NCBI RefSeq assembly: GCF_000449425.2 | Contig: NZ_AVHW01000086.1 | Location: 62,001-126,000, forward strand | Length of the DNA stretch: 64,000 nucleotides | From: Clostridioides difficile CD160 | Lineage (GTDB): Bacteria; Bacillota; Clostridia; Peptostreptococcales; Peptostreptococcaceae | Direction: 5' to 3' | Shown here: in pieces, positions 2,207 to 47,083 of the stretch | Layout: each line of letters begins with the position of its first letter | Position numbering within the stretch: position 1 is the first letter of the stretch | Position numbers and translations under genes: made by a program | The notes under the pieces: generated by a model | Database searches by the model: none | Told to the model about the DNA's origin: nothing | What the model saw: only the letters and a program-made list of their open reading frames with translations

Positions 2207-3334
2207 TTAAATATTTCTCAAACTATATCTTATAAAATTTCTTCCTACTTTTGTATCTCCATACTTTAACATCTGTATAACTTCATTTTTTTCTTTTTGT
2301 AAATAAATAGAACATTCTTCTAAAGACTTAAATATCTCTAATACTTCACCTTTTTTATTTACTAGTTCAATCTTTTTCTTTCCACCTCTTTTGATTATAG
2401 ACTTATATTTTTTAAAATATTCATCATATTCTTCATCGATACATTCAAATTTATAATTCATTTTTAATGCTTCAATTTTATCATTGGTCAAAATTTCATT
2501 TCTCTTTTTATCAGAAAGTCTTGTACTAAATATTTTATCATTGAGAATATTAAATATCTCAGATGGAGATTTATTATTTTCTAAATAGCTCCATTCATTT
2601 TTACAGTACTCTTCCACATTTAACACTTTACTTAAATAGTTTATTGCATCTCCAAAGTAATCCATATATCCATATTTTAAATTTTCTCTTATATATCCTA
2701 GTGGTATTTTAAGGCTTTTGCTACACTGTATATGGGTATCGAAAATCTTCTCTTCTTTAGTATACAAGTTTATTGCTTTTATACTTTTTCCTCTTTTTAT
2801 TTTTATTTCTTTTATGTAATCTAAATCTTCTTCTGTCAAGCATTCACTTATTTCTTTTTTTTCAATAATATTTTTTACTATATTATTACTTTCATTTTGG
2901 TTAAATTCTTCAAATCTCTTTAAATTTGTTTTTTCACTTTCAATTTGAACTTCTTTTTTACATAAGTTCATGTTTTTATCAGTAATAAACACTTCTTTTT
3001 CATCTGATTCTATAGTCTTTTTGCTAATTAACCACTCTTCCTCTACTATTTTATTATCATCACCCACTACTTCCACTTTAGTTAATATTTCGTTATCAAT
3101 ATTAGCCATTACGTCTTCTGTAAATGATGTTTCATTCAATATTAATCTTTCTTGTTCTAAAACTCCATCTTCTTTATTTATAGTTTTGTCTTTATTGATT
3201 AATGTCTTTTCTTCTTCATCTATTGACTTTTCTTCGGACGATATTTTTTTGTTTTTTAATATTATTTCACCTTCTTCTTTTACTGCATCACTTTTTTGTC
3301 TTTTTTTCATAATACCAAACCACTTTTTTAACAC
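2207..3334 (-). CDS. Acidic hypothetical protein with two NUMOD1-like repeats
   Basis: A 375-aa protein of unknown function. Residues about 10-150 are a repetitive Glu/Lys/Ile-rich region with no predicted globular domain. Two later segments (about 183-222 and 320-372) each run from a short beta strand through a KEEKIFDTHIQCSKSL- or GEVLEIFKSLEECS-like turn into a helix and a KYG motif. This resembles NUMOD1, a small DNA-binding module of homing endonucleases. No GIY-YIG, HNH or other nuclease motif is visible. The start is GTG at 3332-3334, with AGGAGGAA (3341-3349) correctly spaced; the ATG eight codons later has no comparable site. It stands alone between two intergenic stretches. The NUMOD1 reading is by eye and could be wrong. 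Confidence 0.6.
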   Translation of the reverse strand: MLKKWFGIMKKRQKSDAVKEEGEIILKNKKISSEEKSIDEEEKTLINKDKTINKEDGVLEQERLILNETSFTEDVMANIDNEILTKVEVVGDDNKIVEEEWLISKKTIESDEKEVFITDKNMNLCKKEVQIESEKTNLKRFEEFNQNESNNIVKNIIEKKEISECLTEEDLDYIKEIKIKRGKSIKAINLYTKEEKIFDTHIQCSKSLKIPLGYIRENLKYGYMDYFGDAINYLSKVLNVEEYCKNEWSYLENNKSPSEIFNILNDKIFSTRLSDKKRNEILTNDKIEALKMNYKFECIDEEYDEYFKKYKSIIKRGGKKKIELVNKKGEVLEIFKSLEECSIYLQKEKNEVIQMLKYGDTKVGRNFIRYSLRNI

Positions 3335-3613
3335 TCAATGTTCCTCCTAATACTTTATCTACTATTTTATATTATCACATAAAATATTTACTATTCCTAT
3401 AAATCCTTTAATTTTTTATATTTCTATAACTATAAAGTTTTATTTACACAAATTACTTTTTATACTTGTACACTTATGAAATTTCTATCTAATGCATTTT
3501 CATACTTACAATGTAGCATTTATTTCATAGTAATTATATCATGTTTTTATAAAATATCGTATTTTTAAATCTTTTACACTAAAAGTCATAATAAATATAT
3601 CTAATAATCATCA

Positions 3614-3666
3614 CAAAAAAGGACTTAATTAATCATATAAACCCTGAAACTATATGATTAATCAAA
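3614..3666 (-). terminator. Rho-independent terminator of the YjdF-like/oxidoreductase operon
   Basis: A 15-bp inverted repeat (3625-3639 with 3651-3665) is followed on the minus strand by GTCCTTTTTTG. It lies about 30 nt beyond the stop of the membrane-protein gene. The rest of the 363-bp gap up to 3334 shows no gene. Confidence 0.8.
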
Positions 3667-3697
3667 TCCATTATAATTAATATAAAAAAATTTAAAT

Positions 3698-4255
3698 CTA
3701 TATGTTAGATTTTTTTACTATAAAAGGGATAGTTATAATTGTACCTATTAAAGCATCTATCATATCAATCATAGTATCTTCTAATCCACCAGCTTGCGTC
3801 GTAGTGCCAATAAAAGTATCCATTAAAAATTCACCTATTTCCCACAAACTAGCTACTCCCATACTAAACATAAATACAAATATAACTAAAAATATTTTGC
3901 TCATTTTGCTTATATCTTTTTGTATATAAAAATATCTAATCATAGAAAATGCTACAATACTAGATATTATACCTGACCATAAATGTAAAAAATCATCGTA
4001 ATAATTTATATCGTAAAAATTAAAACAAGTTCCCAACAATGATGAAAACATTATAAATAAGGCAAGAACAATATATAATTCTTTACTTAAAAGTCTTTCA
4101 TTATGCTTATTTAAAAGTCTAAGTATAAAAGTACCAATTAAACTGATTGCTACTAATCCTACACTTCCAAAAGCCCTATTTATAGCAAAAAATATAGCAC
4201 AGACAACATATACTATATATAATAATATAGTTATTGGTTTTAAAAGTTTATTCAT
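3698..4255 (-). CDS. YjdF/DUF2238-like integral membrane protein
   Basis: About 185 aa, with five or so hydrophobic helices. Motifs match the DUF2238 (YjdF) family: YYDDFLHLWSGI in the middle, WEIGEFLMDTF, and DTMIDMIDALIG near the C-terminus. The acidic and His residues in these helices are conserved in the family; its function is not established. A GTG two codons upstream (4261) is in frame, but AAAGG lies too close to it, so the ATG at 4255 is preferred. The gene sits 26 bp behind the FAD/Rieske gene and shares its terminator, so the two are probably one transcript. Confidence 0.75.
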   Translation of the reverse strand: MNKLLKPITILLYIVYVVCAIFFAINRAFGSVGLVAISLIGTFILRLLNKHNERLLSKELYIVLALFIMFSSLLGTCFNFYDINYYDDFLHLWSGIISSIVAFSMIRYFYIQKDISKMSKIFLVIFVFMFSMGVASLWEIGEFLMDTFIGTTTQAGGLEDTMIDMIDALIGTIITIPFIVKKSNI

Positions 4256-4281
4256 ACACACTTTACCTTTCTAAAACAATT

Positions 4282-5808
4282 CTATAATAGCTTAGGATTG
4301 ACATCATTATCACCATGTCCATAAAGCTTTAATGGCTTAAGAGCTGGTCCTTCAAGTATATTTCCCTTATAGTCGAATCTAGAACCATGACATGGACAAT
4401 CCCATGTTTTTTCTTCACTATTAAAATTAAGTTCACATCCTAAATGAGTACATGTAGTATCTACAATATAAAAATCTCCTATATCATCTTTATACACACC
4501 ATACCTTTTTCCATCAATATTAACAATCTTCCCTTCTCCATTATTTTTAGGCATATCTCCACTACCTATTTTTAACTTTCCACTTACATAATTCATTGCT
4601 ACATTAGCATTTTCCTTTATAAAGTCTTTTGAAAAATAACTTCCTAATCTTGATGGATTAAAAGTATCCTTATAATTGGAATTACTGTTTATTATCAAAT
4701 CCTTTATTATTATTCCTGCAACAGTTCCATTAGTAATTCCCCATTTAGAGAATCCTGTAGCCACATAAATATTATTTTCTCTTTTATTAATATAACCTAT
4801 ATAAGGAACATTATCGAAACTCATATTATCTTGAGCTGACCATTTGCATTTAAAATCTTTTACCTTAAATACCTTTTTTCCATAATGTTCTAAGTCATCA
4901 AATATGTCTTTTTCAGTTCCTCCCTGACCAACTTTATGGTCTCCTCCTCCAAAAATCAGTAAATTTTCATTTCCATCATTATATTGCCTAAAAGTTATTG
5001 ATGGGTCATCTATACTTATAAACATACCATCTGGTAATTTATTTTCTAAAACTGCTGCCATTAAGTAAGCACGTTCTGCATATTCTTTTGCAAAATAAAA
5101 ATTCAACCCATCATACCATGGACTATGAGATGAAATTATAACATTTTCAGCTTCTATTATATTATTTTCTCTTGTCTTAACTCTACATATTTTCCCTTTT
5201 TCTAAATCTATTACTGGTGTCTCTTCATATATTTTTACACCTAAATGTACTCCCATTTCTGCTAATCCATCAATATACTTCTTTGGATTAAATTGACCTT
5301 GATTAGTGAAACTAATAGCTCCCTTTATGTCTAATGGAATATCTGATATAGTTTCATGATACTCACAATCTACTCCTATTTTCTTGCATGTACGATATTC
5401 ATCCTTTATGTCTTTTATAGTTTCTTCTTTTTCTGTAAATACAAAAGATGGTTCTCTTTTAAAATCACATTTGATATTATTCTCTTTTATTATTTGCTCA
5501 ATTAAGTCTAGAGCTTCATTATTTGCATTATAATATGATTTTGCTTTATCTAATCCATATTTTTTCTCTATCTTAGAATAAAATATGTCATGCTGACAAG
5601 TTACCTTACCAGTATTTCTTCCTGAAGTTCCATATCCTATTTTATCAGCTTCAACAAGTGCTACTTTTTTACCCTCTTTTGCTAATAAATATGCAGTTGT
5701 CAATCCAGTTATTCCTCCACCTACTATAAGACACTCTACTTTTATATTTTCGCCTAACTTTTTATATTCCTTTGGACTTGAATTTAAAAACCAATACGAT
5801 TCGTTCAT
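4282..5808 (-). CDS. FAD-dependent oxidoreductase with C-terminal Rieske [2Fe-2S] domain
   Basis: A 508-aa soluble redox protein of the DAO/GlpO type fused to a Rieske domain. The N-terminus has the dinucleotide motif VGGGITGLTTAYLLA and the acidic strand end VEAD, followed by GYGTSGRNTGK. The C-terminal 80 residues hold the cluster ligands CTHLGC and CPCHGSRFD, the classic CxH...CxxH pairs. Related proteins oxidise amines or other small molecules and pass electrons through the iron-sulfur centre; the substrate here is unknown. ATG with an upstream AGGAG supports the start. It is transcribed ahead of the YjdF-like membrane protein, suggesting a membrane partner. Confidence 0.87.
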   Translation of the reverse strand: MNESYWFLNSSPKEYKKLGENIKVECLIVGGGITGLTTAYLLAKEGKKVALVEADKIGYGTSGRNTGKVTCQHDIFYSKIEKKYGLDKAKSYYNANNEALDLIEQIIKENNIKCDFKREPSFVFTEKEETIKDIKDEYRTCKKIGVDCEYHETISDIPLDIKGAISFTNQGQFNPKKYIDGLAEMGVHLGVKIYEETPVIDLEKGKICRVKTRENNIIEAENVIISSHSPWYDGLNFYFAKEYAERAYLMAAVLENKLPDGMFISIDDPSITFRQYNDGNENLLIFGGGDHKVGQGGTEKDIFDDLEHYGKKVFKVKDFKCKWSAQDNMSFDNVPYIGYINKRENNIYVATGFSKWGITNGTVAGIIIKDLIINSNSNYKDTFNPSRLGSYFSKDFIKENANVAMNYVSGKLKIGSGDMPKNNGEGKIVNIDGKRYGVYKDDIGDFYIVDTTCTHLGCELNFNSEEKTWDCPCHGSRFDYKGNILEGPALKPLKLYGHGDNDVNPKLL

Positions 5809-6052
5809 TTAAAATACTCCTTTACATATTAAATAATAATAGTTTTCCCATCATCAAGTTTATTTATTATAAATAGCATAAAAATAAATATATTATTGTA
5901 ATAAATAAACTGTTACATTACTTAATATATAAATAGAAATAACTATATAATTAAGTCAATACAATTAAGAACACATTGTAAAATTTAGTGTATAAAATCT
6001 AAAAATTTTACAAAATAGAAATTCCAGAACCTTTGATTAACTTTTTCTAGTT
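5809..6052. other. Intergenic stretch with no gene
   Basis: AT-rich spacer holding the presumed promoter of the oxidoreductase operon. No open frame or convincing RNA structure seen. Confidence 0.45.
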
Positions 6053-6094
6053 ACAAAAAAATATTACTGGAAATCAAATTTTCCAGTAATATTT
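6053..6094 (-). terminator. Rho-independent terminator of the amino-acid ABC operon
   Basis: The hairpin pairs AATATTACTGGAAA with TTTCCAGTAATATT around a short loop. On the minus strand it is followed by a run of seven T. It lies about 50 nt past the permease stop. Confidence 0.85.
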
Positions 6095-6141
6095 AATAAC
6101 AAAACACATCTACACAATTTTATGAATATCTCTTATAATAT

Positions 6142-6810
6142 TTAATATACCTCACTAAGTCTTTCTTCTAGCTTGGTCTGAACAAAACCTAATATAAGAT
6201 TTACAATCCAGTATACTACTATTACACAAGTAAAAGCTTCTAAATATTTATAACTTGCTGCTGCTTCCGATTGGGCAACTGCCATAATTTCTGTAACCCC
6301 AATAGTAAAAGCAAGAGAAGTTCCTTTTATAATATCTGCAAAAGTATTTGTAAAAGGTGGGATTGCAACCCTTATAGCTTGTGGTAAGACAATTCTTTTC
6401 ATTGTTTGTACATACGTCATTCCAAATGCTAGACTTGCATCTATTTGACCTTTATCTACAGATGTTATAGCACCTCTTAAACTCTCTGCAAAATAAGCAG
6501 AAGAATTTAAACCAATTACTATTACTGCTGCTGAAAATGATTCCAATGCTTTAAGTTCTGGTACTAATTGAATTAGACCAAAGTATATAAAGAAAAGTTG
6601 AGCAGCAAGAGGAGTACCTCTAAAAAATGATATATATATTCTTGATACTGTTTTTAAAATAGGAACTTTAGCATCTACAATTAATGCTATGAGTAAAGCT
6701 ATAACAATTCCCAATCCCAAAGATAACAGAGACATTTTAAATGTTACTGTCAAATATTTTAATATTAATGGAAATATATCTGCTGCAAATCCAAAATCAA
6801 ATACTTGCAT
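6142..6810 (-). CDS. Amino-acid ABC transporter permease (HisM/GlnP type)
   Basis: A 222-aa polar-amino-acid ABC permease with about five helices. It shows the N-terminal YLTVTFKMSLLSLGLG start typical of the HisMQ family, SFFRGTPLAAQLFF, and the cytoplasmic EAA loop (DASLAFGMTYVQTMKRIVLPQAIR) that docks with the ATPase. It would form the membrane channel for the binding protein encoded 13 bp upstream. No ATP-binding subunit is encoded on either side, so the transporter must borrow one or use an ATPase encoded elsewhere. Confidence 0.9.
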   Translation of the reverse strand: MQVFDFGFAADIFPLILKYLTVTFKMSLLSLGLGIVIALLIALIVDAKVPILKTVSRIYISFFRGTPLAAQLFFIYFGLIQLVPELKALESFSAAVIVIGLNSSAYFAESLRGAITSVDKGQIDASLAFGMTYVQTMKRIVLPQAIRVAIPPFTNTFADIIKGTSLAFTIGVTEIMAVAQSEAAASYKYLEAFTCVIVVYWIVNLILGFVQTKLEERLSEVY

Positions 6811-6823
6811 CCTTAACCTCCAA

Positions 6824-7645
6824 TTAATTTTCCTTAGTTGTATCTAAACCAAACCACTTTTCAGATAATTTTGTAAATGTTCCATCTTCATGCATTGCTT
6901 TTATAGCCTTATTTACGTCCTCTATAATGACTTTACTTTTCTCTTCTTTTCTAAATGGATATTGATTTACTTCATATACACCAGTATCTATATCTGCAAC
7001 CTTTAATTTAAGTTTACCTTGTTCTATAGTTGTTTTAGCTTTAACTTCTGAAAGCCATGCAACATCAATTCTTCCATTTTCTACATCCTTTTCCATAGGT
7101 ACTCCATCATATGTAACTATATCAATCCCTAAGTTATGTTTTTCATTTAAATCTCTTATAGTTTTTTCTCCATTACCACCTAGAACACACCCTACCTTTT
7201 TACCTTTTACGTCTTCTATCTTACTTATAGTACTATCCTCTGGTACTATAAACTTATACTTACTATATGCGTAAGTATCTGAAAAATCATATTTTTCTAC
7301 TCTTTCAGGAGTAGTTGACATTTGGTGTGCTACTGTGTCAACTTTACCAGCGTCTAACATGCCCATAAGCCCACTAAATTTAGCAGTTTTAAACTCTACT
7401 TTATAACCAGTTCTTTTTGATATTTCCTTCCATACATCAATTTCAAAACCTTTATTTTCATCATTTTCTTTATAACACCATGGTGCATATTCTACTGATA
7501 CACCTACATTTAAAGTCCCTTTATCTTTTTTAGAAGTATCTTCTTTTGTAGTTTCACCATCTTTACTTGAACAGCCAACTAACATTGTTGTTCCTAAAAC
7601 TAATGTCAATAATAATGAGAATACTTTTTTACTTTTTAATTTCAA
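6824..7645 (-). CDS. Amino-acid ABC transporter substrate-binding lipoprotein
   Basis: About 273 aa. The signal peptide ends in a lipobox (TTMLVGCSS), so the protein is anchored to the outer face of the membrane. The mature part has SBP_bac_3 hallmarks: GVSVEYAPWCY, KGFEIDVWKEI, GLMGMLDAGKVDTVA and FSDTYAYS. It captures an amino acid, possibly cystine or another polar one, for the adjacent permease. A GTG at 7654 is in frame, but the AGAGGGA site (7655-7664) abuts it. The TTG at 7643-7645 has proper spacing and gives a normal signal peptide, so it is preferred. Confidence 0.87.
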   Translation of the reverse strand: MKLKSKKVFSLLLTLVLGTTMLVGCSSKDGETTKEDTSKKDKGTLNVGVSVEYAPWCYKENDENKGFEIDVWKEISKRTGYKVEFKTAKFSGLMGMLDAGKVDTVAHQMSTTPERVEKYDFSDTYAYSKYKFIVPEDSTISKIEDVKGKKVGCVLGGNGEKTIRDLNEKHNLGIDIVTYDGVPMEKDVENGRIDVAWLSEVKAKTTIEQGKLKLKVADIDTGVYEVNQYPFRKEEKSKVIIEDVNKAIKAMHEDGTFTKLSEKWFGLDTTKEN

Positions 7646-18843: not shown

Positions 18844-19001
18844 TTTTATAGAAGAGTTGCTATATAGCACACCGAAGGAGTAACACTCTCAGGTACTTTT
18901 TAAAAGTAGGACTGTAAAATTTACGGAACTCTGGAGAGACCCATTATGGGCGCCGAAGGGGCAAGGCTTTTATGCTCAATCTCTCAGGCAAAAGGACAGG
19001 G
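18844..19001 (+). promoter_or_regulatory. Tandem glycine riboswitch
   Basis: Two glycine aptamers in series. Aptamer I has P1 formed by TTTTATAG (18844-18851) with CTGTAAAA (18912-18919) and the core ACCGAAGGAGTAA...ACTCTCAGGTA...AGGACTG. Aptamer II has the core GCCGAAGGGGCAAGG...TCTCTCAGGCAAAAGGACAGGG, with P1 from CUCU (18929-18932) and AGGG (18998-19001). The short linker between them is the usual arrangement. It senses glycine in the nascent leader of the downstream symporter gene. Confidence 0.95.
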
Positions 19002-19064
19002 ATTATCTACCAAAATCAGTATTATTAATACTTTTATTTTGGTTGCTAATTAGTGTATATCCAG

Positions 19065-35148: not shown

Positions 35149-35355
35149 CTACATTGTCAGTATTTTATATAATATAAAATTTAATACAAGCATAATTCCC
35201 ATAGAATAAACTAAACTATTGGAGAAAAAGTTAAAACATATAAGAATTCCTAACATTTGTGTAAATGTAAAAATGACCAAAATCAAAATGCAATTAAATA
35301 TTAAACTTTTTTCTTTTATAAGTTTTCCACTAAAATTTTTCAATCTTATAACCAA
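35149..35355 (-). CDS. Small two-helix membrane protein between regulator and kinase genes
   Basis: A 68-aa frame with two hydrophobic segments (about 18-37 and 44-65) and a basic N-terminus. It overlaps the response-regulator 3' end by 26 bp, starts at TTG (35355 or 35343) behind a G-rich GGTGGTGTGGGG stretch inside that gene, and ends 14 bp before the kinase start, so all three are translationally coupled. It could be an accessory membrane subunit of the kinase. The first ten codons are partly forced by the overlapping regulator sequence, so only the later part is independent evidence. Confidence 0.55.
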   Translation of the reverse strand: MVIRLKNFSGKLIKEKSLIFNCILILVIFTFTQMLGILICFNFFSNSLVYSMGIMLVLNFILYKILTM

Positions 35356-36022
35356 CTCCCCACACCACCTTTAAAAATCTTGGTTCTTTTGGATTTATTT
35401 CAATCTTTTCTCTTATTCGCCTAATATGTACTGCGACTGTATTTTCTGAATTAAAGCTTTCTTCATTCCATACTTTTTCGTATATCTCATCTATTGAAAA
35501 AACTCGTCCTTTATTTTCTAAAAGAAGTTCAATGATTTTGTACTCAATTGGAGTCATTTTTATATTTTCACCATCAATTTTCACTTCTTTTGTTAGTGTA
35601 TTTAATTCTAAAGCTCCACTTTTTAAAATTTCTTTACATGTATCTTCGTAATTGCCTAAAGTTACATATCGTCTTAAGTTTGATTTAACTCTAGCTATAA
35701 GCTCTAATAAGTTAAATGGCTTTGTTATATAATCATCAGCTCCAATATTTAATCCCATTATTTTATCTGTATCTTCACTTTTTGCTGAAATTAAAATTAT
35801 TGGTATGTTTCTTTCTTCTCGTATTTTTACAGTTGCTTTGATTCCATCTAATTTAGGCATCATTATATCCATTAATATTAGATGAATGTCATTCTCTGTT
35901 ATTATTTCCAAAGCTTTCATTCCATCATATGCTTTATATATTTTAAATCCTTCTGATTTAAGATATATTTCTATTGAATCAACAATTTCTTTATCATCAT
36001 CTACTACTAATATATTGTACAT
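35330..36022 (-). CDS. OmpR-family response regulator
   Basis: A 230-aa two-domain regulator. The receiver domain has VVDDDKE acidic residues, the phosphoacceptor in ILMDIMMPKLDG (D52), the switch Ser/Thr region ILISAKS and the Lys in DDYITKPFN. The C-terminal winged helix ends with HIRRIREKIEINPKEP and VVWGVGYKIEKF. It is a close paralogue of the regulator at 52479. GGAAGTG precedes the ATG. It is first in an operon with the small membrane ORF and the kinase, and probably autoregulated through the AAATCTTAA repeats upstream. Confidence 0.93.
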   Translation of the reverse strand: MYNILVVDDDKEIVDSIEIYLKSEGFKIYKAYDGMKALEIITENDIHLILMDIMMPKLDGIKATVKIREERNIPIILISAKSEDTDKIMGLNIGADDYITKPFNLLELIARVKSNLRRYVTLGNYEDTCKEILKSGALELNTLTKEVKIDGENIKMTPIEYKIIELLLENKGRVFSIDEIYEKVWNEESFNSENTVAVHIRRIREKIEINPKEPRFLKVVWGVGYKIEKF

Positions 36023-38887: not shown

Positions 38888-39205
38888 ATGAATTTTTGGA
38901 ATGGACTATTTTTATTTTTTGGAATAATATTCATAATAGGGAATGTAATAAAAGGTTTAGCTAAACATAAATTCAACTATTTTAGGAAAAAATATTTTAA
39001 CAAATTAGAATTAAAATATGGAAAAATAGATAGAGAAAAAACTATTAAACTAGAGATGTTTTATCAATATTTAATAGACTTGGAATACATAATAATGGGC
39101 TTATTAATAAAAAGATTAAATACTGCAATAATATCATTAATATTAGTATCCATTATCACAATAGTATCCCATTGTTTAATTAGAAAGAAATATATAACTA
39201 TATAA
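38888..39205 (+). CDS. Small hypothetical membrane protein
   Basis: A 105-aa protein I do not recognise. A first hydrophobic helix (about 4-24) is followed by a basic amphipathic stretch (KHKFNYFRKKYFNKLELKYGKI) and a C-terminal hydrophobic pair (about 64-98) ending in a basic tail. AAAGGAG precedes the ATG. It lies alone after the CPBP terminator and has the A/T-rich codon use of the region. Confidence 0.6.
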   Translation: MNFWNGLFLFFGIIFIIGNVIKGLAKHKFNYFRKKYFNKLELKYGKIDREKTIKLEMFYQYLIDLEYIIMGLLIKRLNTAIISLILVSIITIVSHCLIRKKYITI

Positions 39206-39278: not shown

Positions 39279-39566
39279 TCAATTTTTAAGTTTTGATATA
39301 CTAAAATTTTTAACTTGAGACTTGAATAACTGCTCAATCTCATCAACTATACTCTGTATCTTATCTTCATATTCTAAATCATAATATATATTTATCTCAC
39401 CTATACTATTTATACTTACAGAATATTCTTTTCTTTCTATTATACATATACTTCCACAATCTGATAAATCATTTTTGTATATTGATTTTAATTGTCTTTT
39501 TATCTTGGGAAAGTCTATTGTTGGATAAATATTATTTGGATAAAAACTCTTATCATTTATTAACAT
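39279..39566 (-). CDS. Hypothetical small protein
   Basis: A 95-aa soluble protein of unknown function. It shows an alternating strand pattern (CGSICIIERKEYSVSINSIGEINIYY) and a C-terminal amphipathic helix (DKIQSIVDEIEQLFKSQVKNF). A GTG at 39575 is in frame but the AAGGGG site overlaps it; the ATG at 39566 has 8-nt spacing and is preferred. A fragment of a near-copy of its last 26 codons lies at 41432-41517, so the gene was once duplicated with its terminator. Confidence 0.6.
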   Translation of the reverse strand: MLINDKSFYPNNIYPTIDFPKIKRQLKSIYKNDLSDCGSICIIERKEYSVSINSIGEINIYYDLEYEDKIQSIVDEIEQLFKSQVKNFSISKLKN

Positions 39567-39671
39567 CCTATCCACCCCTTATCATTCTATTTATTTAAAT
39601 TTATACCTTAATCAAAACGATATTAAACATATTTTCCCATATTTTCATAATCATTTTATATAGTATCTAAT

Positions 39672-39866
39672 CTATCTATTAATAAAATCTAGTGCTTTGT
39701 AAAGTGTATCAAATCTATCATTACCTTTTATCATGGTGTATCTCTCTTTAGTTATAGAACTTATCTTATTGCATGCTCCTCCACCTATAACATATAAATT
39801 TTCTGTCTGACCTGGTACATAATCTTTTATATCACATATTAATATTTTTCCGTCATTATACCCCAA
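39672..39866 (-). pseudogene. Remnant resembling a cell-wall-binding repeat 2 (CWB2) end
   Basis: A 64-codon frame beginning with TTG and no good ribosome site. NLYVIGGGACNKISS followed by GNDRFDTLYKALDFINR recalls the VVGG...DRYDT pattern of CWB2 modules in clostridial surface proteins. A separate upstream frame with an ATG near 39930 (about 29 codons) runs into this region out of phase, suggesting a broken gene. The CWB2 link is weak and by eye. Confidence 0.35.
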
Positions 39867-40049
39867 CCAAATACAGTTACAGAGATTTTGCCAACCTCTC
39901 CATCATAAACGATTGTATATTTATACATTATTTTTCCCTCACCATTCTCTTTAGGGAAGTTTTACCATACATTCTACATATTTAGTCTATTTTTTTAAAG
40001 TAAAATAACGTTCATATATATAAATTTATTCAATTTTCAAACAAGTCTA

Positions 40050-40078
40050 TTGAATAATAATTAATTCTATTGTATTAT
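40050..40078 (+). promoter_or_regulatory. Promoter of c-di-GMP riboswitch copy 1
   Basis: TTGAAT (40050-40055) and TATTAT (40073-40078), 17 bp apart. The same boxes with the same spacing occur before copy 2, although the spacer differs, which supports the call. Confidence 0.65.
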
Positions 40079-40099
40079 TGTAATTGTAGAATAAAACTA

Positions 40100-40188
40100 A
40101 ATCGGCAAAACTAGAGAAATTTAGTGACGCAAAGCTATAGGGACTAAGACTTATAAAATAAGTTATAAGTTATGTCAGCCAGTTGCCA
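40100..40188 (+). promoter_or_regulatory. Class-I cyclic di-GMP riboswitch (GEMM-I), copy 1
   Basis: The aptamer closes with GGCAA (40104-40108) and TTGCC (40183-40187). P1b is ACTAGA-GAAA-TTTAGT with its GNRA loop, then GACGCAAAGC...AGGGACTAAG, a P2 stem ACTTATAA/TTATAAGT, and GTCAGCCAG. By alignment with the Vc2 RNA, the ligand-contacting G20, A47 and C92 are kept. It controls the 58-aa gene downstream. Confidence 0.93.
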
Positions 40189-40212
40189 AAAAGATATTTT
40201 CTTTTTGTTTTT
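40187..40212 (+). terminator. Expression-platform terminator of riboswitch copy 1
   Basis: CAAAAAGA (40187-40194) pairs with TCTTTTTG (40200-40207) and runs into TTTTTA. Its 5' base is shared with the end of aptamer P1. The stem is weak (A/T), so the switch direction cannot be read with certainty; class-I c-di-GMP switches studied in C. difficile act as off switches. Confidence 0.7.
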
Positions 40213-40243
40213 ATGAAAGTTTTTTAGGGGGATAATAATATAT

Positions 40244-40420
40244 ATGTTTAGAGATAAAATGGATAGATGTACACATATGTTAACTGCTTATATTGCTAGT
40301 TCATATGATTATTGTGATTTTATAGATACACAGCTAGATGATTTTATCCTAGAGTACGGAGAAAATGTGGTAGAATCATGTTTGCATCAAGTGATGGTAT
40401 TGGTAAGTAAATATAATTAA
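40244..40420 (+). CDS. 58-aa protein controlled by a c-di-GMP riboswitch
   Basis: A small soluble, acidic protein with three Cys (C9, C24, C46), rich in Tyr/Asp (IASSYDYCDFIDTQLDDF) and ending in an amphipathic ESCLHQVMVLVSKYN. No known family recognised. AGGGGGAT (40226-40233) precedes the ATG at slightly long spacing. It is the only gene between the riboswitch and a terminator at 40731. A decayed copy with matching codons lies behind the second riboswitch, which supports that this frame is a true gene. Confidence 0.65.
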   Translation: MFRDKMDRCTHMLTAYIASSYDYCDFIDTQLDDFILEYGENVVESCLHQVMVLVSKYN

Positions 40421-40730
40421 ATAGACATTATTTTCTAGAATATCCTTTTTAGTTTTTTCTACTTTTAAAAATTAATTCTTGCTAAAGATTTTATTAAAAT
40501 ATATTTATTAAAAAGAAACATAATATTAATGATTTTAAAACTTATATATTAAAAGAATTATAGTTATAAAGTAACTATAAGTTACAAGAAATTTCGATTT
40601 AGACAATCTTGTTGATATTACAAAATAAACATTAAGAGAGAATGAGATTGATTTAATAATTATTGATGAAAAAATAATATTGTTTGGAAAATAAAAAAGC
40701 AATCCAAATGAGAATGCTTAATTATAATGA
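40421..40730 (+). other. Spacer with a short open remnant
   Basis: No intact gene. A plus-strand stretch ending at 40694 reads RENEIDLIIIDEKIILFGK before a stop, preceded closely by stop codons. It could be the tail of a lost gene (PLD-like proteins have a similar LIIIDEKI segment), but it is too short to name. Confidence 0.3.
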
Positions 40731-40766
40731 TAGAAGTGTACTACAAATACACTTCCATTTTTTATT
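40731..40766 (+). terminator. Rho-independent terminator
   Basis: GAAGTGTA (40733-40740) pairs with TACACTTC (40748-40755), followed by CATTTTTTATT. It ends plus-strand transcription from riboswitch 1. Confidence 0.85.
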
Positions 40767-40931
40767 ACATAATATAGTTTTATTTTTCAGAATAAATTTC
40801 ATTCGTCTTATTACTATTCAATATATTTTGTTTGATTGAAAAAATATAATTCTTTACAAATAGTATTATATTAAATGTTTTATTTGATTTTTATCTATAA
40901 CATTTTAATTTATATATTTATAATTAAAATG

Positions 40932-41256
40932 TTATAATTGAGTTCCATTTATGACTATATCACAAATTCTTGCTCCTCCATTAGACTTGCCTTTTTTTAA
41001 TCTTTCTACATAGGTGGGAGAATTTGAAGTCTTACCAGTAATACTTTTTACATTTAATCTATTATCATTATTAAATTCCAAGTATCCATTGTAACCGCCA
41101 ATATATATCAAGATTATTGACATTTGAATCTAACAAAACATTTTTTCTATTTGATATATCCGTTTCTAAAAAATTATTTGCAAAGATATTAATAGAAAAA
41201 CTCCTCCCTAATATTACTGTTGATAATAATAAAAATATTACTTTCTTAAAGTTCAT
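40932..41256 (-). pseudogene. Frameshifted small secreted protein
   Basis: The ATG at 41256 begins a signal peptide (MNFKKVIFLLLSTVILGRSF) and a mature segment that reaches NVNNLDIY. The frame then runs to an early stop, while the overlapping frame continues as GGYNGYLEFNNDNRLNVKS...GGARICDIVINGTQL to 40932. A single-base change around 41090-41110 would join them to a protein of about 100 aa. GGGGGAAAG precedes the ATG. Family unknown. It could also be programmed frameshifting, but no slippery heptamer stands out. Confidence 0.55.
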
Positions 41257-41387
41257 AATTTACTTTCCCCCTAGTTAAAATTAAAGCTATCTATAAAAAA
41301 TTTTGTGATTTTACAATGTTTATATTTAGCTCCCCTTCTAGTAACATTATAACTTCCATATGATGATATCTAAATATATTTATTTAT

Positions 41388-41430
41388 CAAAAAGAAGGTA
41401 ACAACATTCTCCAGTTGTTATCTTATAATA
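41388..41430 (-). terminator. Degenerate duplicate of the 39238 terminator
   Basis: GGTAACAAC pairs with GTTGTTATC. The segment is similar to 39238-39272 and follows a copied gene end, so it came with the duplication. Confidence 0.6.
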
Positions 41431-41431
41431 G

Positions 41432-41517
41432 TCAATGCTTAAATTTTGATACACTAAAATTTTTAACTTGAGATTTAAATAACTGTTCAATCTCATCAAT
41501 TGTAGCGTTTATAAAAC
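41432..41517 (-). pseudogene. Truncated copy of the 3' end of the gene at 39279
   Basis: The minus strand reads TIDEIEQLFKSQVKNFSVSK, near-identical to the C-terminus of the 95-aa protein, then a stop. The 5' part is missing: the response-regulator stop lies 1 bp away at 41519. Confidence 0.75.
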
Positions 41518-41518
41518 T

Positions 41519-42199
41519 TTATATCTTATTAAAATAATATCCTGCTTTTCTTATTGTTATAATCTTTTGAGGGTTTTTATAATTTTTTTCTATTTTCTTT
41601 CTTAATCCATTTACTGCAACTACCACACTATAGTTATCCTCTAAATATTCATTCATCCATACATGTTCATATATCTCTTTAGTAGTTAAGGTCTTTTCAG
41701 GATTTTCCATAAAGAAGTTTAATAACTTATTCTCTATTGGAGTTAATTTTATTATTTTATTTTCTAATTTTATAACTCCACTATTTCTATTATAATTCTC
41801 TAACTCAGTATTATGTTTATTATTATTTACATATAAATTCTCTCTTCTTAAAAGTGCTTTTACTTTTGCATATAATATTTCTAAATTTAAAGGCTTTGTT
41901 AAATAATCATCTCCACCAGAATCCAAAGCATTTAAAATACTTTGTACTTTATTTATACAAGTCATATGAATAATTGGGCAAGTCGTTATATTTCTGATTT
42001 TTTTACAAAAAGTCCAGCCATCACCATCAGTTAAAATTATCTCTAAAAATATTAAATCAAATTTATTACTAAATAGTTTTGTAATAGCTTCTTCACAGTT
42101 ATATGCTAGATCAACATTTATCCCTTTTCCTTCTAAAAAATTTTTCAATTCCTGACAATTATCCTTATCTCCATCTATTATCAATATATTAGCTTGCAT
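41519..42199 (-). CDS. Orphan OmpR-type response regulator with Glu at the phosphoacceptor site
   Basis: A 226-aa receiver plus winged-helix protein. The receiver keeps IIDGDKDN at the N-terminus, the HMTCI Thr and the Lys of DDYLTKPLN, but the usual Asp in the LxD motif is Glu: DLIFLEIILTDGDG (E53), where the two other regulators in this window have D52 and D53. Pro after the motif is also lost (Thr). The C-terminal winged helix (LTPIENKLLNFFMENPE, VVAVNGLRKKIEKNYKNP, IRKAGYYF) looks intact. A GTG at 42208 overlaps the AGGAG, so the ATG at 42199 is preferred. No kinase is adjacent. It may act without phosphorylation. Confidence 0.82.
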   Translation of the reverse strand: MQANILIIDGDKDNCQELKNFLEGKGINVDLAYNCEEAITKLFSNKFDLIFLEIILTDGDGWTFCKKIRNITTCPIIHMTCINKVQSILNALDSGGDDYLTKPLNLEILYAKVKALLRRENLYVNNNKHNTELENYNRNSGVIKLENKIIKLTPIENKLLNFFMENPEKTLTTKEIYEHVWMNEYLEDNYSVVVAVNGLRKKIEKNYKNPQKIITIRKAGYYFNKI

Positions 42200-42380
42200 T
42201 ATAATCACTCCTAAATATAATTATTTCTTTCTATAAAGAATCAGACAAATATCTTTAGTCTATTTTCTGATAGTTTGTCTTTACTGTTATAAGAAACTTT
42301 AACAATTATAAGTCTATTTTCTTTATTATTTGTATATATATTTTTAAATTTGAACACTTCAAAATTAACACAATGTCCTT

Positions 42381-42434
42381 GTATGTCTAGTAATTTATTT
42401 TAGTATACATAGTAAAATAAATTACTAGACATAC
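42381..42434 (+). repeat. Perfect 22-bp hairpin with T-run
   Basis: GTATGTCTAGTAATTTATTTTA (42381-42402) is exactly mirrored at 42413-42434 around a 10-nt loop, followed by TTTTTAAC on the plus strand. It is formally a strong terminator, but no plus-strand gene lies upstream; it may be the relic of a lost unit or a small repeat. Confidence 0.7.
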
Positions 42435-43022
42435 TTTTTAACTAAAATCAATATTTTTATATTTTAATGTAAATTATTGTAGACTATAGATTTTATTTTG
42501 TCTTCATTTGGTTTTTGATTTACTGTATAAGAATAAGTTTATTTTTAGAAAAAGTATAACCACCTATAGTTAAAAGTCCATTATTTGCTCTAAAAAGTTA
42601 TATTGGTACTTATTATCATACTTATACATAAATTTTAATTTTCATTACATCGACCACACATCTACTAAATAAAAACTATTTATTAATTATAGTTTCTCAC
42701 TTATAGAACAAACTTATATCCTTTTCCCTATACAGTCTGAATATATTAATACTCTTTTCTTAAAGAATTAATTTTATTCTTAATCTATGCAATATGAACC
42801 TGTGCCATATGTTATCTTCTAATATCAAGCATTTCCTAGATTTGATTAGATATTTCTAATTTCGAGAACATTGGTTCTTTGCTTCCAGCTATAAACAATA
42901 ATATTTCAAACTACATAATGGTCAAATAAATGATTTTCCATCAAAAGCACTTTTCTTAAGCTCACATTTATTACTAAAAATGAAAGCTTTAATACATTAG
43001 AAACTAATGTAATCTTTTTATA
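42435..43022. other. Decayed DNA with no intact gene
   Basis: On the minus strand, fragments such as MENHLFDHY and NVLEIRNI are interrupted by stops and may be the ruined DNA-binding part of the response-regulator pseudogene that follows. Nothing else supported. Confidence 0.35.
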
Positions 43023-43370
43023 TTACCTCATATGGAAATATATTCTAAGCTTAAGTTCTTTTAAGCTATATGGTTTTGTCATATACTCATCTCCTCCAGC
43101 TAAGAATTCTCGAACTCTTTCTTCTCTATATACATAATTAGATAAAATATTATATGTATTTTAAACTTTTTTTTATAGCATTACACATCTTATATTCATC
43201 TGAATCTAGTAATGTAACATCTAGAATTATACAATTCAAAACTATATTTTTACTATCACAATTTCAACTTTAGCAATTTCATAGGTATATATATTAAAAC
43301 CTTTATTAGAAAAATAAATTTGATTTATATTTAAAATATCAGCACCATATACAATCAATAGGTTATACAT
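43023..43370 (-). pseudogene. Response-regulator pseudogene (receiver domain remnants)
   Basis: The ATG at 43370 reads MYNLLIVYGADILNINQIYF, a degraded receiver start. Further down, after stops and shifts, come LNCIILDVTLLDSDEYKMC (phosphoacceptor Asp region) and REFLAGGDEYMTKPYSLKEL (switch Lys region), ending at TAA 43023-43025. Order and spacing match a receiver domain, but at least two stops interrupt it. Confidence 0.75.
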
Positions 43371-43532
43371 TTCACTACTCTATTCAAAACTATTTTCAAA
43401 GTATCAAGTTTTAATTATTACAGATTATAGTGCTTCATTTTTATAATACCTTTATAAACTAGGCTTTAAAACTTAAGTATTTTTAAATAATACTTAAATA
43501 TTATCTTAAATAATATTATTAAATACTAATCA

Positions 43533-43798
43533 AAGTCTCCTATTTTGGGGAAAAGGAGCTTAAGATAGTTTTGTATTATAAATATATTGTTTTTTTTAAA
43601 ACACCTATATCACTCTGTTTAAGTATTGATTTCTATGATTTATATAGTTATAATATAAGATATATTGTATTATTTTGGTAAATATATTATTATGAATGTT
43701 TTGGATTCTAATCTTAATCTTTATAAAAACATTACTTTTCTGTTATAATTATATTATATTTCAAAAAAAGTTTCCCTTTCCCCAAAAATGGCTACTTT
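43533..43798. repeat. Imperfect inverted repeats bounding 266 bp (MITE-like)
   Basis: About 30 bp at 43533-43563 (AAAGTCTCCTATTTTGGGG...) is mirrored with a few mismatches at 43769-43798. The interior has no coding potential. No target-site duplication was evident. Confidence 0.45.
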
Positions 43799-43872
43799 AG
43801 AAAATTAATGTTCCATTGTCTAACTATTAATATAATAATTTTTAAATATTAACTGGAAATTATATAATTAAG

Positions 43873-43901
43873 TAGACATCTTTATTAATTTATGATACAA
43901 T
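43873..43901 (+). promoter_or_regulatory. Promoter and 5' leader of the cold-shock gene
   Basis: TAGACA (43873-43878) and TACAAT (43896-43901), 17 bp apart. A small hairpin TTGTGT-TAGT-ACACAA (43908-43922) follows in a leader of about 60 nt, as often found on cold-shock mRNAs. Confidence 0.6.
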
Positions 43902-43966
43902 AGTATTTGTGTTAGTACACAATTAAATCAAGTATATCTTGATATAGGTTAATAGGAGTATTTTTA

Positions 43967-44167
43967 ATGAATAATGGAATAGTGAAATGGTTCAACAACG
44001 AAAAAGGATTTGGATTTATATCAGTAGAAAATGGAGATGACGTATTTGCTCATTTCTCAGCTATACAAACTTCAGGATTTAAATCATTAGAAGAAGGTCA
44101 AAAAGTAAGCTTTGATATAGTTAAAGGCGCTAGAGGTCCTCAAGCAGAAAATATAACTATATTATAA
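43967..44167 (+). CDS. cspA: Cold-shock protein (CspA/CspB family)
   Basis: A 66-aa OB-fold protein binding single-stranded RNA and DNA as an RNA chaperone. It opens with [18 protein letters not shown] (RNP1 KGFGFI) and holds RNP2 DVFAHF, then [12 protein letters not shown] and GPQAENI. Full family length. ATAGGAG precedes the ATG. A leader hairpin and strong terminator bound a single-gene transcript. Confidence 0.95.
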
Positions 44168-44181
44168 TATATAGATTTTTC

Positions 44182-44211
44182 GGAAAAGACTCTTTTTAGA
44201 GTCTTTTTTTA
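44182..44211 (+). terminator. Rho-independent terminator of the cold-shock gene
   Basis: AAAAGACTC (44184-44192) pairs with GAGTCTTTT (44199-44207) and runs into T. The following 44212-44483 has no gene. Confidence 0.92.
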
Positions 44212-44483
44212 TTTAGTTATTTATATTTTTGCACATAATCCTAAAACTTTATGAACAACTCCAAATAAAAATAACTATTCTAATATTAAACTTGTTAAAA
44301 TATCTTCCATAGTTTGGTGATGTTGTCATACTATAATATCAATTCAATTTAGCTATAAACATTCTTCTATCCACTTAGATATCTTTTAATATTAATACTA
44401 AGTTGAAATTAATTGGTCATTAATCTTTCTCGAAAAAATAATTTTTTCATATCCATAAATTTTTCAATTTTCAAATAAGTCTA

Positions 44484-44512
44484 TTGAATAATGCTTCATT
44501 CTGTTGTATTAT
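44484..44512 (+). promoter_or_regulatory. Promoter of c-di-GMP riboswitch copy 2
   Basis: TTGAAT (44484-44489) and TATTAT (44507-44512) at 17 bp, the same boxes as copy 1. Confidence 0.65.
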
Positions 44513-44532
44513 ATAATTGTAGAGTAAAACTA

Positions 44533-44620
44533 AATCGGCAAAACTAGAGAAATTTAGTGACGCAAAACTATAGGGACTAAGGCTTATAAAATTTTTATAA
44601 GTTATGTTAGCCAGTTGCCA
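44533..44620 (+). promoter_or_regulatory. Class-I cyclic di-GMP riboswitch (GEMM-I), copy 2
   Basis: A near-copy of the aptamer at 40100, closed by GGCAA (44537-44541) with TTGCC (44615-44619). Compared with copy 1, G becomes A at 44567 and C becomes T at 44608, compatible with a conserved base pair. P2 also differs but still pairs. The predicted ligand contacts are kept, so the aptamer looks functional although its gene is broken. Confidence 0.9.
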
Positions 44621-44645
44621 AAAAGATATTTTCTTTTTGTTTTTA
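44619..44645 (+). terminator. Expression-platform terminator of riboswitch copy 2
   Basis: CAAAAAGA (44619-44626) and TCTTTTTG (44632-44639) plus T-run, identical to copy 1. Confidence 0.7.
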
Positions 44646-44673
44646 TGAAATTTTTTTAGGGGGATATGATAGT

Positions 44674-44849
44674 ACATTTACAAATAATATAGATAGACAC
44701 ACTCATATATTATCTACCTATATTGGTAGTGCATATGATTATTACGATTTTATACATACACAATTAGGTAATTTTATACTACAGAGCGGATAAAAATAGT
44801 AGAAAATTATTTACATCAAGTTATGTTATTAGTAAACATAATTAGATAG
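44674..44849 (+). pseudogene. Decayed copy of the 58-aa riboswitch-controlled gene
   Basis: The codon aligned with the start of copy 1 is ACA instead of ATG. The frame then reads NNIDRHTHILSTYIGSAYDY and DFIHTQLGNFILQSG before a stop, and the rest (VENYLHQVMLLV) continues in another frame. The ribosome site AGGGGGAT is still present. Three independent defects make it a pseudogene. Confidence 0.85.
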
Positions 44850-44998
44850 ATTTTATTTTCTAGAAAACCCTTTTTAGTTTTATCTACTTTTAAGAAATGT
44901 TTGATGAAAATTAATTGATATATTCTTATCATTTCAGAGTTTTATTTTTTAATGAAATATAACAAATCTAAAATAGCTTGAAGTACCCACTTATTTAT

Positions 44999-45035
44999 TA
45001 AAATCGTCTTGATTTAACTTAAGGCGATTTTTTAA
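44999..45035 (+). terminator. Rho-independent terminator after the riboswitch-2 unit
   Basis: AAAATCGTCTT (45001-45011) pairs with AAGGCGATTTT (45022-45032), one G-U pair, then TT. Confidence 0.8.
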
Positions 45036-45037
45036 GT

Positions 45038-45580: not shown

Positions 45581-46648
45581 TTATTCTTTTTTTTGATTTT
45601 TAATTTGATTTTTATTTATATACATTTTTTTATCAACCATATGTAGTATTTCCTCAAGGTCATCTTCTTTATTATATTCACTTACTCCACATGCAAAACT
45701 GAGGTCATATTTTTCTAACTGTATCTTAGATTTATTAAGAGCATTTAAGAGTACTTCTTCATTTACTTTAGTTGATATCAACATGAATTCATCTCCACCC
45801 GTACGATAAAGAGATGCAATATCTTTAACATTCTTATTAATAATATCAACAAATAAAATTAATACTTTATCGCCCTCATCATGCCCATAATTATCATTGA
45901 TATACTTGAAATTGTTAATATCTAAAAGAGCAATCACACAATTTAAAGAATTATTAATTTTATCTAGCATATAATTATACATTTGGCGATTGTATGCTCC
46001 TGTCAGTGAATCTTTTGAAAAGAAATTAATATTTTGTAGTATGTAATAAATAATAAGTCCTAATGCTGAAAACCCATAACTTAGAAAATGATAGTAATAA
46101 AAAATTTCTAAAAGTAATCCTACAATTATTGTAACAGCAATAGATGTAACAATAATACGTTCCATTCTCTTTTCTTGCACATGAGAAGTAACTGGATTGA
46201 TTATAAATATTAAAATATATAATAATACTGTAAAAGAAGGTATAAAAAATAGACACCCTCTTTCATAATAATTATTTATATCTATAAAAAATATAATTTT
46301 AATAAACATACTAAAAAAACAAATAATAAAATTTATCAAAAATGGCAAATAAAATATAATTGTATCCTTTTTTTGTTTAAATATCTTTATAAGTAAAATA
46401 GGAATCAATGGACTTATTGCAAAATTTAAAAAAGATGTAATCCTACGAACCATCCATAGTGATGAATTTGTCTGTTTTGATATTATGTAATCAGTAGATG
46501 TAACTATAATAAGTATTAAATTAATCACTATTGATATTATAAACAATTTACTCTGCTCCTTATTAAATAAATGATTCATTTTAATAAGAAATATCAAAAA
46601 AATCAATCCTATAAATGGTATCAAATAGGCATAAATAATGGTACTCAA
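45581..46648 (-). CDS. Membrane-bound diguanylate cyclase (GGDEF domain)
   Basis: About 355 aa. Seven or so N-terminal helices (to about residue 205) form a membrane sensor, followed by a GGDEF domain (about 215-350) with LTGAYNRQMYN, ALLDINNFKYINDNYGHDEGD and the signature YRTGGDEFML. It would make c-di-GMP from two GTP. The RxxD inhibition site is not present (the position 9 residues before the signature is Lys). A longer frame starts at 46678, but AGGAGGAGG sits seven nt before TTG 46648, which is preferred. It lies beside two c-di-GMP riboswitches. Confidence 0.88.
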   Translation of the reverse strand: MSTIIYAYLIPFIGLIFLIFLIKMNHLFNKEQSKLFIISIVINLILIIVTSTDYIISKQTNSSLWMVRRITSFLNFAISPLIPILLIKIFKQKKDTIIFYLPFLINFIICFFSMFIKIIFFIDINNYYERGCLFFIPSFTVLLYILIFIINPVTSHVQEKRMERIIVTSIAVTIIVGLLLEIFYYYHFLSYGFSALGLIIYYILQNINFFSKDSLTGAYNRQMYNYMLDKINNSLNCVIALLDINNFKYINDNYGHDEGDKVLILFVDIINKNVKDIASLYRTGGDEFMLISTKVNEEVLLNALNKSKIQLEKYDLSFACGVSEYNKEDDLEEILHMVDKKMYINKNQIKNQKKE

Positions 46649-47083
46649 ATTTTGTCCTCCTCCTATATACATTATCAATTAAAATATACTTCTATACTTA
46701 AAAATTTCTATGATTTACGCTTTATAACGCCTATTTCATATAATATATTATACACTAGAAAAATGACTTATTATATTATAATATGTAAATATTTACCATA
46801 TTTTTATAAAAAATAAATATAAACTTTATATCAATTAAATAGAAGATTAAAACTCTAATTCCATAATATATAATATTTTTATTATGCAAAAATAAATTTA
46901 TTATTTGAATTTATTCAATAGATTATAATTATTTTACATAATAGCTCTTAGTTCATATTTTATTAATTAAATTCATATGAACTAAGTTAACACTAGAAAT
47001 TTTAAACAATAATTAATACAGTAAACTCTTTACAATCTAGACACTATATTATATCTACCCCCTCAAATAAATCTTTTTAACAC
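46649..47083. other. Divergent intergenic region, no gene
   Basis: A/T-rich DNA between the GGDEF gene and the molybdate operon. Promoters for both are expected; only the mod promoter could be proposed. No RNA motif recognised; in particular nothing resembling a molybdenum-cofactor riboswitch. Confidence 0.45.

What the first reader, a model, noticed from the sequence alone, without database searches (positions are those of the whole stretch)
40050..44849. Duplicated c-di-GMP riboswitch with a 58-aa gene; one copy's gene has decayed but its riboswitch is intact
Two c-di-GMP-I aptamers with the same promoter boxes, terminators and ribosome sites each precede a copy of a small gene. Copy 1 (40244-40420) is intact. 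Copy 2 has lost its start codon (ATG to ACA), gained a stop and shifted frame, yet its aptamer keeps the ligand contacts and its changes fall in pairing positions (G/C to A/U). Either the duplication is young, or the second RNA has a role without the protein, such as a c-di-GMP-responsive small RNA or a decoy for c-di-GMP. The 58-aa Cys/Tyr/Asp-rich protein fits no family I know.
Basis: partly seen in the sequence, partly recalled or inferred. Interest (0 to 1): 0.72.

Follow-up and report, generated by a model that had tools for sequence, protein, structure and literature searches.

The report
Orphaned c-di-GMP riboswitch beside intact twin
A Clostridioides genome carries two copies of a known RNA switch that senses the messenger c-di-GMP; one still precedes its small gene, while the other has kept a recognisable switch long after its gene died, an example of a pattern already known in this genus whose purpose is unsettled.

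Summary
Rfam finds two c-di-GMP-I aptamers (76.7 and 74.5 bits). Copy 1 leads into an intact 58-aa frame. Copy 2's frame lost its start, gained a stop and has 1-nt and 4-nt deletions. The basic system is known: in C. difficile 630 three class I riboswitches control 177-nt genes as OFF switches and five others have no detected gene (PMC6200980). Added here: (1) the 58-aa family (phrog_9888) was found only in this genus, 8 of 297 genomes of the order. (2) The cassette is carried by prophages: 25 of 25 viral-contig loci hold an endolysin within about 5 kb; copy 1 lies beside an endolysin relic. (3) The duplication is not young. Copy 2 was found in four of eight genomes; three share its lesions, the fourth has no frame, yet aptamers differ at 1-3% (6-7% to the fourth) against 9.5-12.5% (21-22.5%) at fourfold sites. 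(4) The reciprocal paralogue, intact gene without aptamer, occurs in 8 of 8 genomes. Retained RNA function is plausible, not shown.

The parts
40050..40078 (+). promoter-like boxes of copy 1 (TTGAAT-17-TATTAT)
   Evidence: same spacing in copy 2; not above chance on its own
40094..40190 (+). copy 1 c-di-GMP-I riboswitch aptamer
   Evidence: RF01051, 76.7 bits
40187..40212 (+). copy 1 A-U terminator-like hairpin and U run
   Evidence: fold -6.7 kcal/mol; not listed by the consensus scan, which asks for G-C pairs
40226..40231 (+). copy 1 ribosome site AGGGGG
   Evidence: sequence
40244..40420 (+). copy 1 58-aa gene, intact, phrog_9888 family
40431..40464 (+). conserved 3' element of the cassette (TTTTCTAGAA..CCTTTTTAGTTTTxTCTAC)
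   Evidence: alignments
39672..39866 (-). relic: C-terminal part of a phage endolysin
   Evidence: up to 90.6% identical in phage records (21 records matched); 79% to phiC2 endolysin residues 201-270
39279..39575 (-). 98-aa gene that lies beside the endolysin in some prophages
   Evidence: 87-88% identity in viral loci L198, L213, L214; 67-72% in L206, L207, L215
38888..39205 (+). 105-aa gene also found near the cassette in two viral loci
   Evidence: 79% in L211, 66% in L217
44484..44512 (+). promoter-like boxes of copy 2
   Evidence: not above chance on its own
44527..44622 (+). copy 2 c-di-GMP-I riboswitch aptamer (orphan)
   Evidence: RF01051, 74.5 bits
44619..44644 (+). copy 2 terminator-like hairpin and U run
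   Evidence: fold -6.7 kcal/mol
44658..44663 (+). copy 2 ribosome site AGGGGG
   Evidence: sequence
44674..44845 (+). dead 58-aa frame of copy 2 (start lost, stop, two deletions)
44856..44887 (+). conserved 3' element of copy 2
43967..44167 (+). cold-shock gene whose homologues lie next to cassettes in several genomes
   Evidence: Pfam CSD

Best explanation
Both copies belong to a dispersed cassette of the genus Clostridioides: promoter, c-di-GMP-I riboswitch, terminator, and a gene for a 58-aa protein predicted to be all-helical. Copy 1 is intact and most likely works as a transcriptional OFF switch: at low c-di-GMP the polymerase reads through and the protein is made; at high c-di-GMP transcription stops after the aptamer and a leader RNA of about 140 nt is left (shown by others for members in strain 630; inferred here from the same anatomy). 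Copy 2 is an old member whose gene died before at least three lineages parted, while promoter, aptamer and terminator were kept by selection. It most likely still makes the c-di-GMP-terminated leader RNA and, at low c-di-GMP, a longer transcript that encodes no protein (inferred). Cassettes are carried by prophages and left behind in prophage relics, which helps to account for the many copies and for copy 1; copy 2 itself groups with chromosomal copies.
For: RF01051 hits; intact frame of a family present in 8 of 8 genomes of the genus. OFF switching of 177-nt genes under Cdi-1-8, -9, -11 (7.78-, 4.66- and 8.90-fold down by RNA-seq; PMC6200980 section 8) and a 140-nt terminated RNA for Cdi1_9 (PMC3649979 passages). 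Copy 2: lesions shared by G000, G002 and G005; riboswitch without frame at the same place in G007; the four leaders form a clade with support 0.99. Aptamer differences 1/96, 3/96, 2/96 against fourfold sites 181/1486, 185/1475, 142/1497 (Fisher p 1.8e-4, 3.1e-3, 9.3e-3); to G007 7/96, 6/96, 6/96 against 96/455, 100/456, 102/453 (p 8.8e-4, 1.7e-4, 1.1e-4). Changes in the first 39 codons of the dead frame by codon position [5,2,0], [6,3,1], [3,1,1]: no third-position excess. Prophage link: an endolysin in 25 of 25 viral loci; phage genes within about 2 kb in 23 of 81 units against 0 of 30 other c-di-GMP-I loci (p 3.8e-4).
Against: No transcript data for this genome. Aptamer against dead frame alone is not significant in any pair (p 0.17, 0.19, 0.34), and the pairwise comparisons are not independent. 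The pair counts carry no statistical weight with four sequences (245 of 500 shuffles as good). G007's copy is weakening (64.7 bits; pair 49-82 lost). Some other dead cassettes also have a well-kept leader (identity 0.92-0.98 to an intact one in L043, L084, L128), so lag in decay cannot be excluded. By qRT-PCR only four of the seven class I genes of strain 630 fell significantly (which four is not marked in the text I saw). McKee et al. saw no sign of function in cis for five orphan class I riboswitches. The 30 controls are four orthologous groups, and 8 of them contain stretches that read N, so that test is weaker than its p value.
Confidence: 0.6

Rival explanations
1. Plain decay with a lag: the copy 2 aptamer has no function and simply has not yet collected enough changes.
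For: G007's orthologue is weakening (64.7 bits); dead cassettes span stages from 76 bits to no hit above threshold; five class I riboswitches of strain 630 have no detected gene and very low reads (PMC6200980).
Against: Fourfold sites changed 4 to 12 times as much as the aptamer among G000, G002 and G005 and about 3 to 3.6 times as much against G007; two other dead cassettes in the same locus of G002 score only 46.6 and 45.0 bits.
Confidence: 0.3
2. The copy 2 aptamer was refreshed by gene conversion from intact paralogues.
For: Several similar cassettes sit in each genome, and two lie 4.4 kb apart here.
Against: The four orphan leaders form their own clade (0.99) and share states that copy 1 lacks at positions 56, 67, 68 and 82.
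Confidence: 0.05
3. The copy 2 RNA is a decoy that soaks up c-di-GMP.
For: The aptamer is intact by model score.
Against: It is one of nine c-di-GMP-I hits in this genome; the baseline c-di-GMP level quoted for C. difficile is 632 nM (passage), so one ordinary promoter would hardly change the free pool (inference).
Confidence: 0.03
4. Copy 2 is still translated into a short peptide from another start (ATG at 44666-44668 gives eight codons, or a non-standard start).
For: The ribosome site is kept in all four lineages; the dead frame differs less than fourfold sites (5.1, 7.9, 5.1% against 12.2, 12.5, 9.5%; p 0.0038, 0.087, 0.052).
Against: That ATG is only two bases from AGGGGG; in G007 the homology ends a few bases after it; changes fall mainly at codon positions 1 and 2 of the old frame.
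Confidence: 0.05

Closest known systems
Cdi-1-8, Cdi-1-9 and Cdi-1-11 of C. difficile 630 with CD630_19903, CD630_23090 and CD630_33682
   Same: class I c-di-GMP riboswitch followed by a 177-nt gene 142-151 nt after the riboswitch start (Table 1 of PMC6200980; copy 1: 150 nt); described as duplicated (PMC3649979) and as encoding 58-aa proteins without conserved domains (PMC11477304)
   Different: no difference of copy 1 was found; the strain 630 sequences were not compared here
Class I riboswitches of strain 630 without a detected gene (Cdi-1-4, -5, -6, -7, -10)
   Same: riboswitch without a detected downstream gene, as copy 2
   Different: copy 2 keeps a recognisable dead 58-aa frame and was found in four lineages; its place was not compared with those in strain 630. 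Sources differ on Cdi-1-10, to which PMC3649979 assigns CD1424
Cdi1_4/Cdi1_5 before the RCd11/RCd12 antitoxin RNAs in prophages phiCD630-1 and -2 (PMC7699646)
   Same: class I riboswitch that drives an RNA without a protein; phiCD27, phiC2 and CD1801 have a similar layout
   Different: no such toxin gene was found beside copy 2 with one query
phrog_9888
   Same: the 58-aa protein matches 58 of 58 positions, E 4.6e-43
   Different: no function is given for the family

Membership tests
c-di-GMP-I riboswitch (RF01051), copy 1 and copy 2 | covariance-model score above gathering over the full model | tested here: met
   76.7 and 74.5 bits, gathering 35, 1-87/87
c-di-GMP-I riboswitch (RF01051), copy 1 and copy 2 | c-di-GMP binding | not testable with these tools
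   needs in-line probing; only sequence and pairing were checked
transcriptional OFF switch of the C. difficile class I type | terminator between aptamer and gene | tested here: inconclusive
   A-U hairpin followed by U in both copies; not listed by the consensus scan, which asks for G-C pairs
177-nt (58-aa) genes under class I riboswitches of strain 630 | 177-nt gene that starts 142-151 nt after the riboswitch start (Table 1 of PMC6200980) | tested here: met
   copy 1: 40244-40420 is 177 nt and starts 150 nt after 40094 (table)
177-nt (58-aa) genes under class I riboswitches of strain 630 | sequence similarity to the strain 630 proteins | not tested
   those sequences were not fetched; no record named strain 630 appeared among the loci
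phrog_9888 | profile match over the whole length | tested here: met
   E 4.6e-43, 1-58 of 58
riboswitch-antitoxin arrangement (RCd11 type), copy 2 | type I toxin gene convergent downstream of the riboswitch | tested here: inconclusive
   no match in the window at E 1e-3 with one query, phiCD27 orf41; other toxin types were not sought

The most novel reading that the evidence does not exclude
Copy 2 is a c-di-GMP-gated noncoding RNA: a riboswitch that outlived its gene and was kept, in four lineages of the genus, as a regulatory transcript in its own right. Not only its aptamer but also its dead frame differs less than fourfold sites in all three comparisons, though clearly so in only one (p 0.0038, 0.087, 0.052).
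Probability: 0.2. Interest if true: 0.6.

Novelty: new member of a known kind. Interest (0 to 1): 0.4.

Why it matters
C. difficile senses c-di-GMP largely through riboswitches (passage), and several of them have no known gene. This locus offers a dated case: shared lesions place gene death before the split of three lineages, so one can ask directly whether an orphan riboswitch is kept by selection. The comparison also suggests a route by which riboswitches come to precede antitoxin RNAs: viral contig L209 has riboswitch, 58-aa gene and a small toxin-like gene in a row, and phiCD27, phiC2 and CD1801 have the same row with the 58-aa gene missing.

Tried and rejected
Function of the 58-aa protein: no Pfam, NCBIfam or PADLOC match at E up to 1; best PDB sequence match E 0.46. 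The AlphaFold2 model is confident (pLDDT 90.8, four helices), but no PDB or viral fold reached E 0.001, and the best VIA-align row (YcaO, Z 7.2, rmsd 2.7, 50 residues) is within what that tool says helical bundles give by chance. phrog_3745 (E 0.019 for one member) was not pursued.

Young duplication: rejected. Gene conversion: disfavoured. Covariation as proof of pairing: one pair (41-89) changes on both sides, but shuffles do as well in 245 of 500. The 58-aa gene in free phages: no tblastn match in the phage collection of 50,697 records (at E 0.01; with a distant member at E 1; the tool says that records near the window may be left out); only the leader is there. Spread as an insertion sequence: homology to other copies often starts near 39953 and ends at about 40469-40510; no test for terminal repeats was run. 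The idea that phages integrate within the cassette (in G003 two cassettes flank an endolysin and a holin gene) was not tested against an attachment site.

In one search the codon-position tallies that involve G000 were out of register; one search replaces them. The first prophage-neighbour count (31 of 81 within 3 kb against 0 of 29 riboswitch controls and 0 of 8 window segments) used shorter stretches for the riboswitch controls; one search repeats it at nearly equal extent. Rows dropped: tblastn pieces within 200 nt of a better one were merged to give 81 units, fragments included; the 30 controls are those of the 78 RF01051 hits whose downstream gene was one of four other types.

Names given by eye or recall, from no database match: the response regulator at 35330-36022, the ABC operon from 47202 ('tungstate-type'), the type I toxin (phiCD27 orf41, deposited as hypothetical; named from its size, layout and the description in PMC7699646), the BlaI/CopY-like genes beyond their deposited labels.
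Full report
Observation. cmscan finds two c-di-GMP-I aptamers in the window, 40094-40190 and 44527-44622, both over the whole model. The 58-aa frame of copy 1 (40244-40420) is intact. Copy 2 has ACA for the start codon, a stop in GGATAA, a 1-nt deletion beside it and a 4-nt deletion. Leader, hairpin and ribosome site correspond between the copies.

What the gene is. A tblastn search finds the protein in 8 of 100 genomes, the 8 of the same genus, with 8 to 12 matches each; a profile search finds it in 8 of 297 genomes of the order. The protein matches phrog_9888 over 58 of 58 positions. Of 81 units collected (fragments included), 59 have an intact frame, 32 of these with the motif GACGCAAA in the leader, and 22 are dead. 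AlphaFold2 gives a confident four-helix model without a convincing structural relative. Its function remains unknown.

What is in print. [quoted passage not shown] PMC11477304 (passages) lists small proteins of 58 aa and an orphan riboswitch. PMC6200980 (passages; [quoted passage not shown] PMC7699646 (passages) describes two of these five before prophage antitoxin RNAs and finds them responsive to c-di-GMP, though dispensable for toxin inactivation. I found no statement that the 58-aa cassette is prophage-borne in the listings of searches or in the passages read; the library holds open-access papers only.

Prophage link. In IMG/VR, 25 loci encode the protein, and in 25 of 25 an endolysin cell-wall domain lies within about 5 kb, in 20 of 25 with a holin. 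Several of these contigs are near-identical, so they are not 25 independent events. In stretches of about 2 kb, 23 of 81 units but 0 of 30 other c-di-GMP-I loci have a phiC2 or phiCD27 gene (p 3.8e-4); the controls are four orthologous groups and 8 of them hold stretches that read N, so the p value flatters the test. In the window, 39672-39866 (minus) is the end of such an endolysin, 39279-39575 is a gene found beside it in prophages at 87-88% identity, and 38888-39205 resembles a gene in viral locus L211. No phage gene was found within 3 kb of copy 2. Four named phages (six records) carry the leader without the gene. In phiCD27, phiC2 and CD1801 the leader runs straight into a region with a small toxin-like gene on the other strand; in viral contig L209 an intact 58-aa gene lies between the two. 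Loss of the gene therefore plausibly made the riboswitch-antitoxin layout (inference from the alignment). phiCD27 and CD1801 keep a good aptamer (69.1 bits), phiCD418 a poor one (37.2), and phiC2 none above threshold.

The locus. Between a response-regulator gene and an ABC-transporter operon (both named by eye) the cassette has come and gone repeatedly. G007 has one cassette (start codon ATA), cspA and an orphan aptamer; G003 has two cassettes flanking an endolysin and a holin gene; G002 has three dead cassettes; G005 has an aptamer-like remnant, an intact cassette and copy 2; G000 has copy 1 and copy 2. G006 has no copy 2 between cspA and the operon; in G001, G003 and G004 none was seen in the stretches taken.

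Age and selection of copy 2. G000, G002 and G005 share the loss of the start (ACA, ATA, ATA), the stop and both deletions; G007 has the leader but no homologous frame. The four leaders form one clade (0.99), among chromosomal rather than viral copies. Among the three, aptamers differ by 1/96, 3/96 and 2/96; fourfold sites of neighbouring genes by 181/1486, 185/1475 and 142/1497 (p 1.8e-4, 3.1e-3, 9.3e-3); the dead frame by 9/178, 14/178 and 9/178 (p 0.0038, 0.087, 0.052). Against G007 the aptamer differs by 7/96, 6/96 and 6/96, fourfold sites by 96/455, 100/456 and 102/453. Dead-frame changes show no third-position excess. So the duplication is old, the protein is gone, and the aptamer has been held back from drifting. 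Against this, aptamer and dead frame alone do not differ significantly in any pair, covariation is too thin to count, and G007's aptamer is weakening.

The mirror image. A paralogue at a conserved place in 8 of 8 genomes keeps the gene but lacks the motif GACGCAAA and has no RF01051 hit; in the four of these eight that were aligned the terminator arm is lost as well. Gene and riboswitch can thus be lost separately.

Verdict. Copy 1 is a member of a published OFF-switch family. Copy 2 is one more orphan class I riboswitch, with its gene's death dated relative to the split of lineages. Whether its RNA does something is open: selection for the riboswitch by some use is my preferred reading (0.6, of which 0.2 for the bold noncoding-RNA reading), lagging decay the main rival (0.3).

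Noticed in passing
L209 1-760 against L225 6030-6580 (phiCD27), L224 (phiC2), L227 (CD1801): Riboswitch, 58-aa gene and a small toxin-like gene in a row in L209; the three phages have the same row with the 58-aa gene missing, so the riboswitch sits directly before the presumed antitoxin side.
   Followed up: partly
L044 7197-7669 and orthologues in the other seven genomes (L082, L091, L102, L107, L115, L124, L134): Paralogue with intact 58-aa frame but no aptamer hit: gene without riboswitch.
   Followed up: partly
L043 (G000:C52) 2464-7582: A dead cassette with a 64.9-bit aptamer and cspA lies beside CRISPR repeats; perhaps the counterpart of the orphan riboswitch reported between CD2517 and CD2517.1 (guess).
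   Followed up: no
window 45581-46678 (minus): A GGDEF gene (putative c-di-GMP synthase) lies convergent to copy 2 in G000, G002 and G005, but not between copy 2 and the ABC operon in G007.
   Followed up: no
window 44998-45036: Hairpin-like sequence with a T run downstream of copy 2, with paired changes in G002; by eye only, possibly a shared terminator of the convergent transcripts.
   Followed up: no
window 18921-19009: Glycine riboswitch aptamer, 67 bits.
   Followed up: no
L223 12001-12183 (NZ_CP067354.1, plasmid pESS17301a): A 57%-identical member of the 58-aa family on a Clostridioides plasmid, without a c-di-GMP-I hit in the fetched stretch.
   Followed up: no
window 40932-41256 and 43242-43370 (minus): Short frames that look, by eye, like remnants of a secreted protein and of a response-regulator receiver domain.
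   Followed up: no
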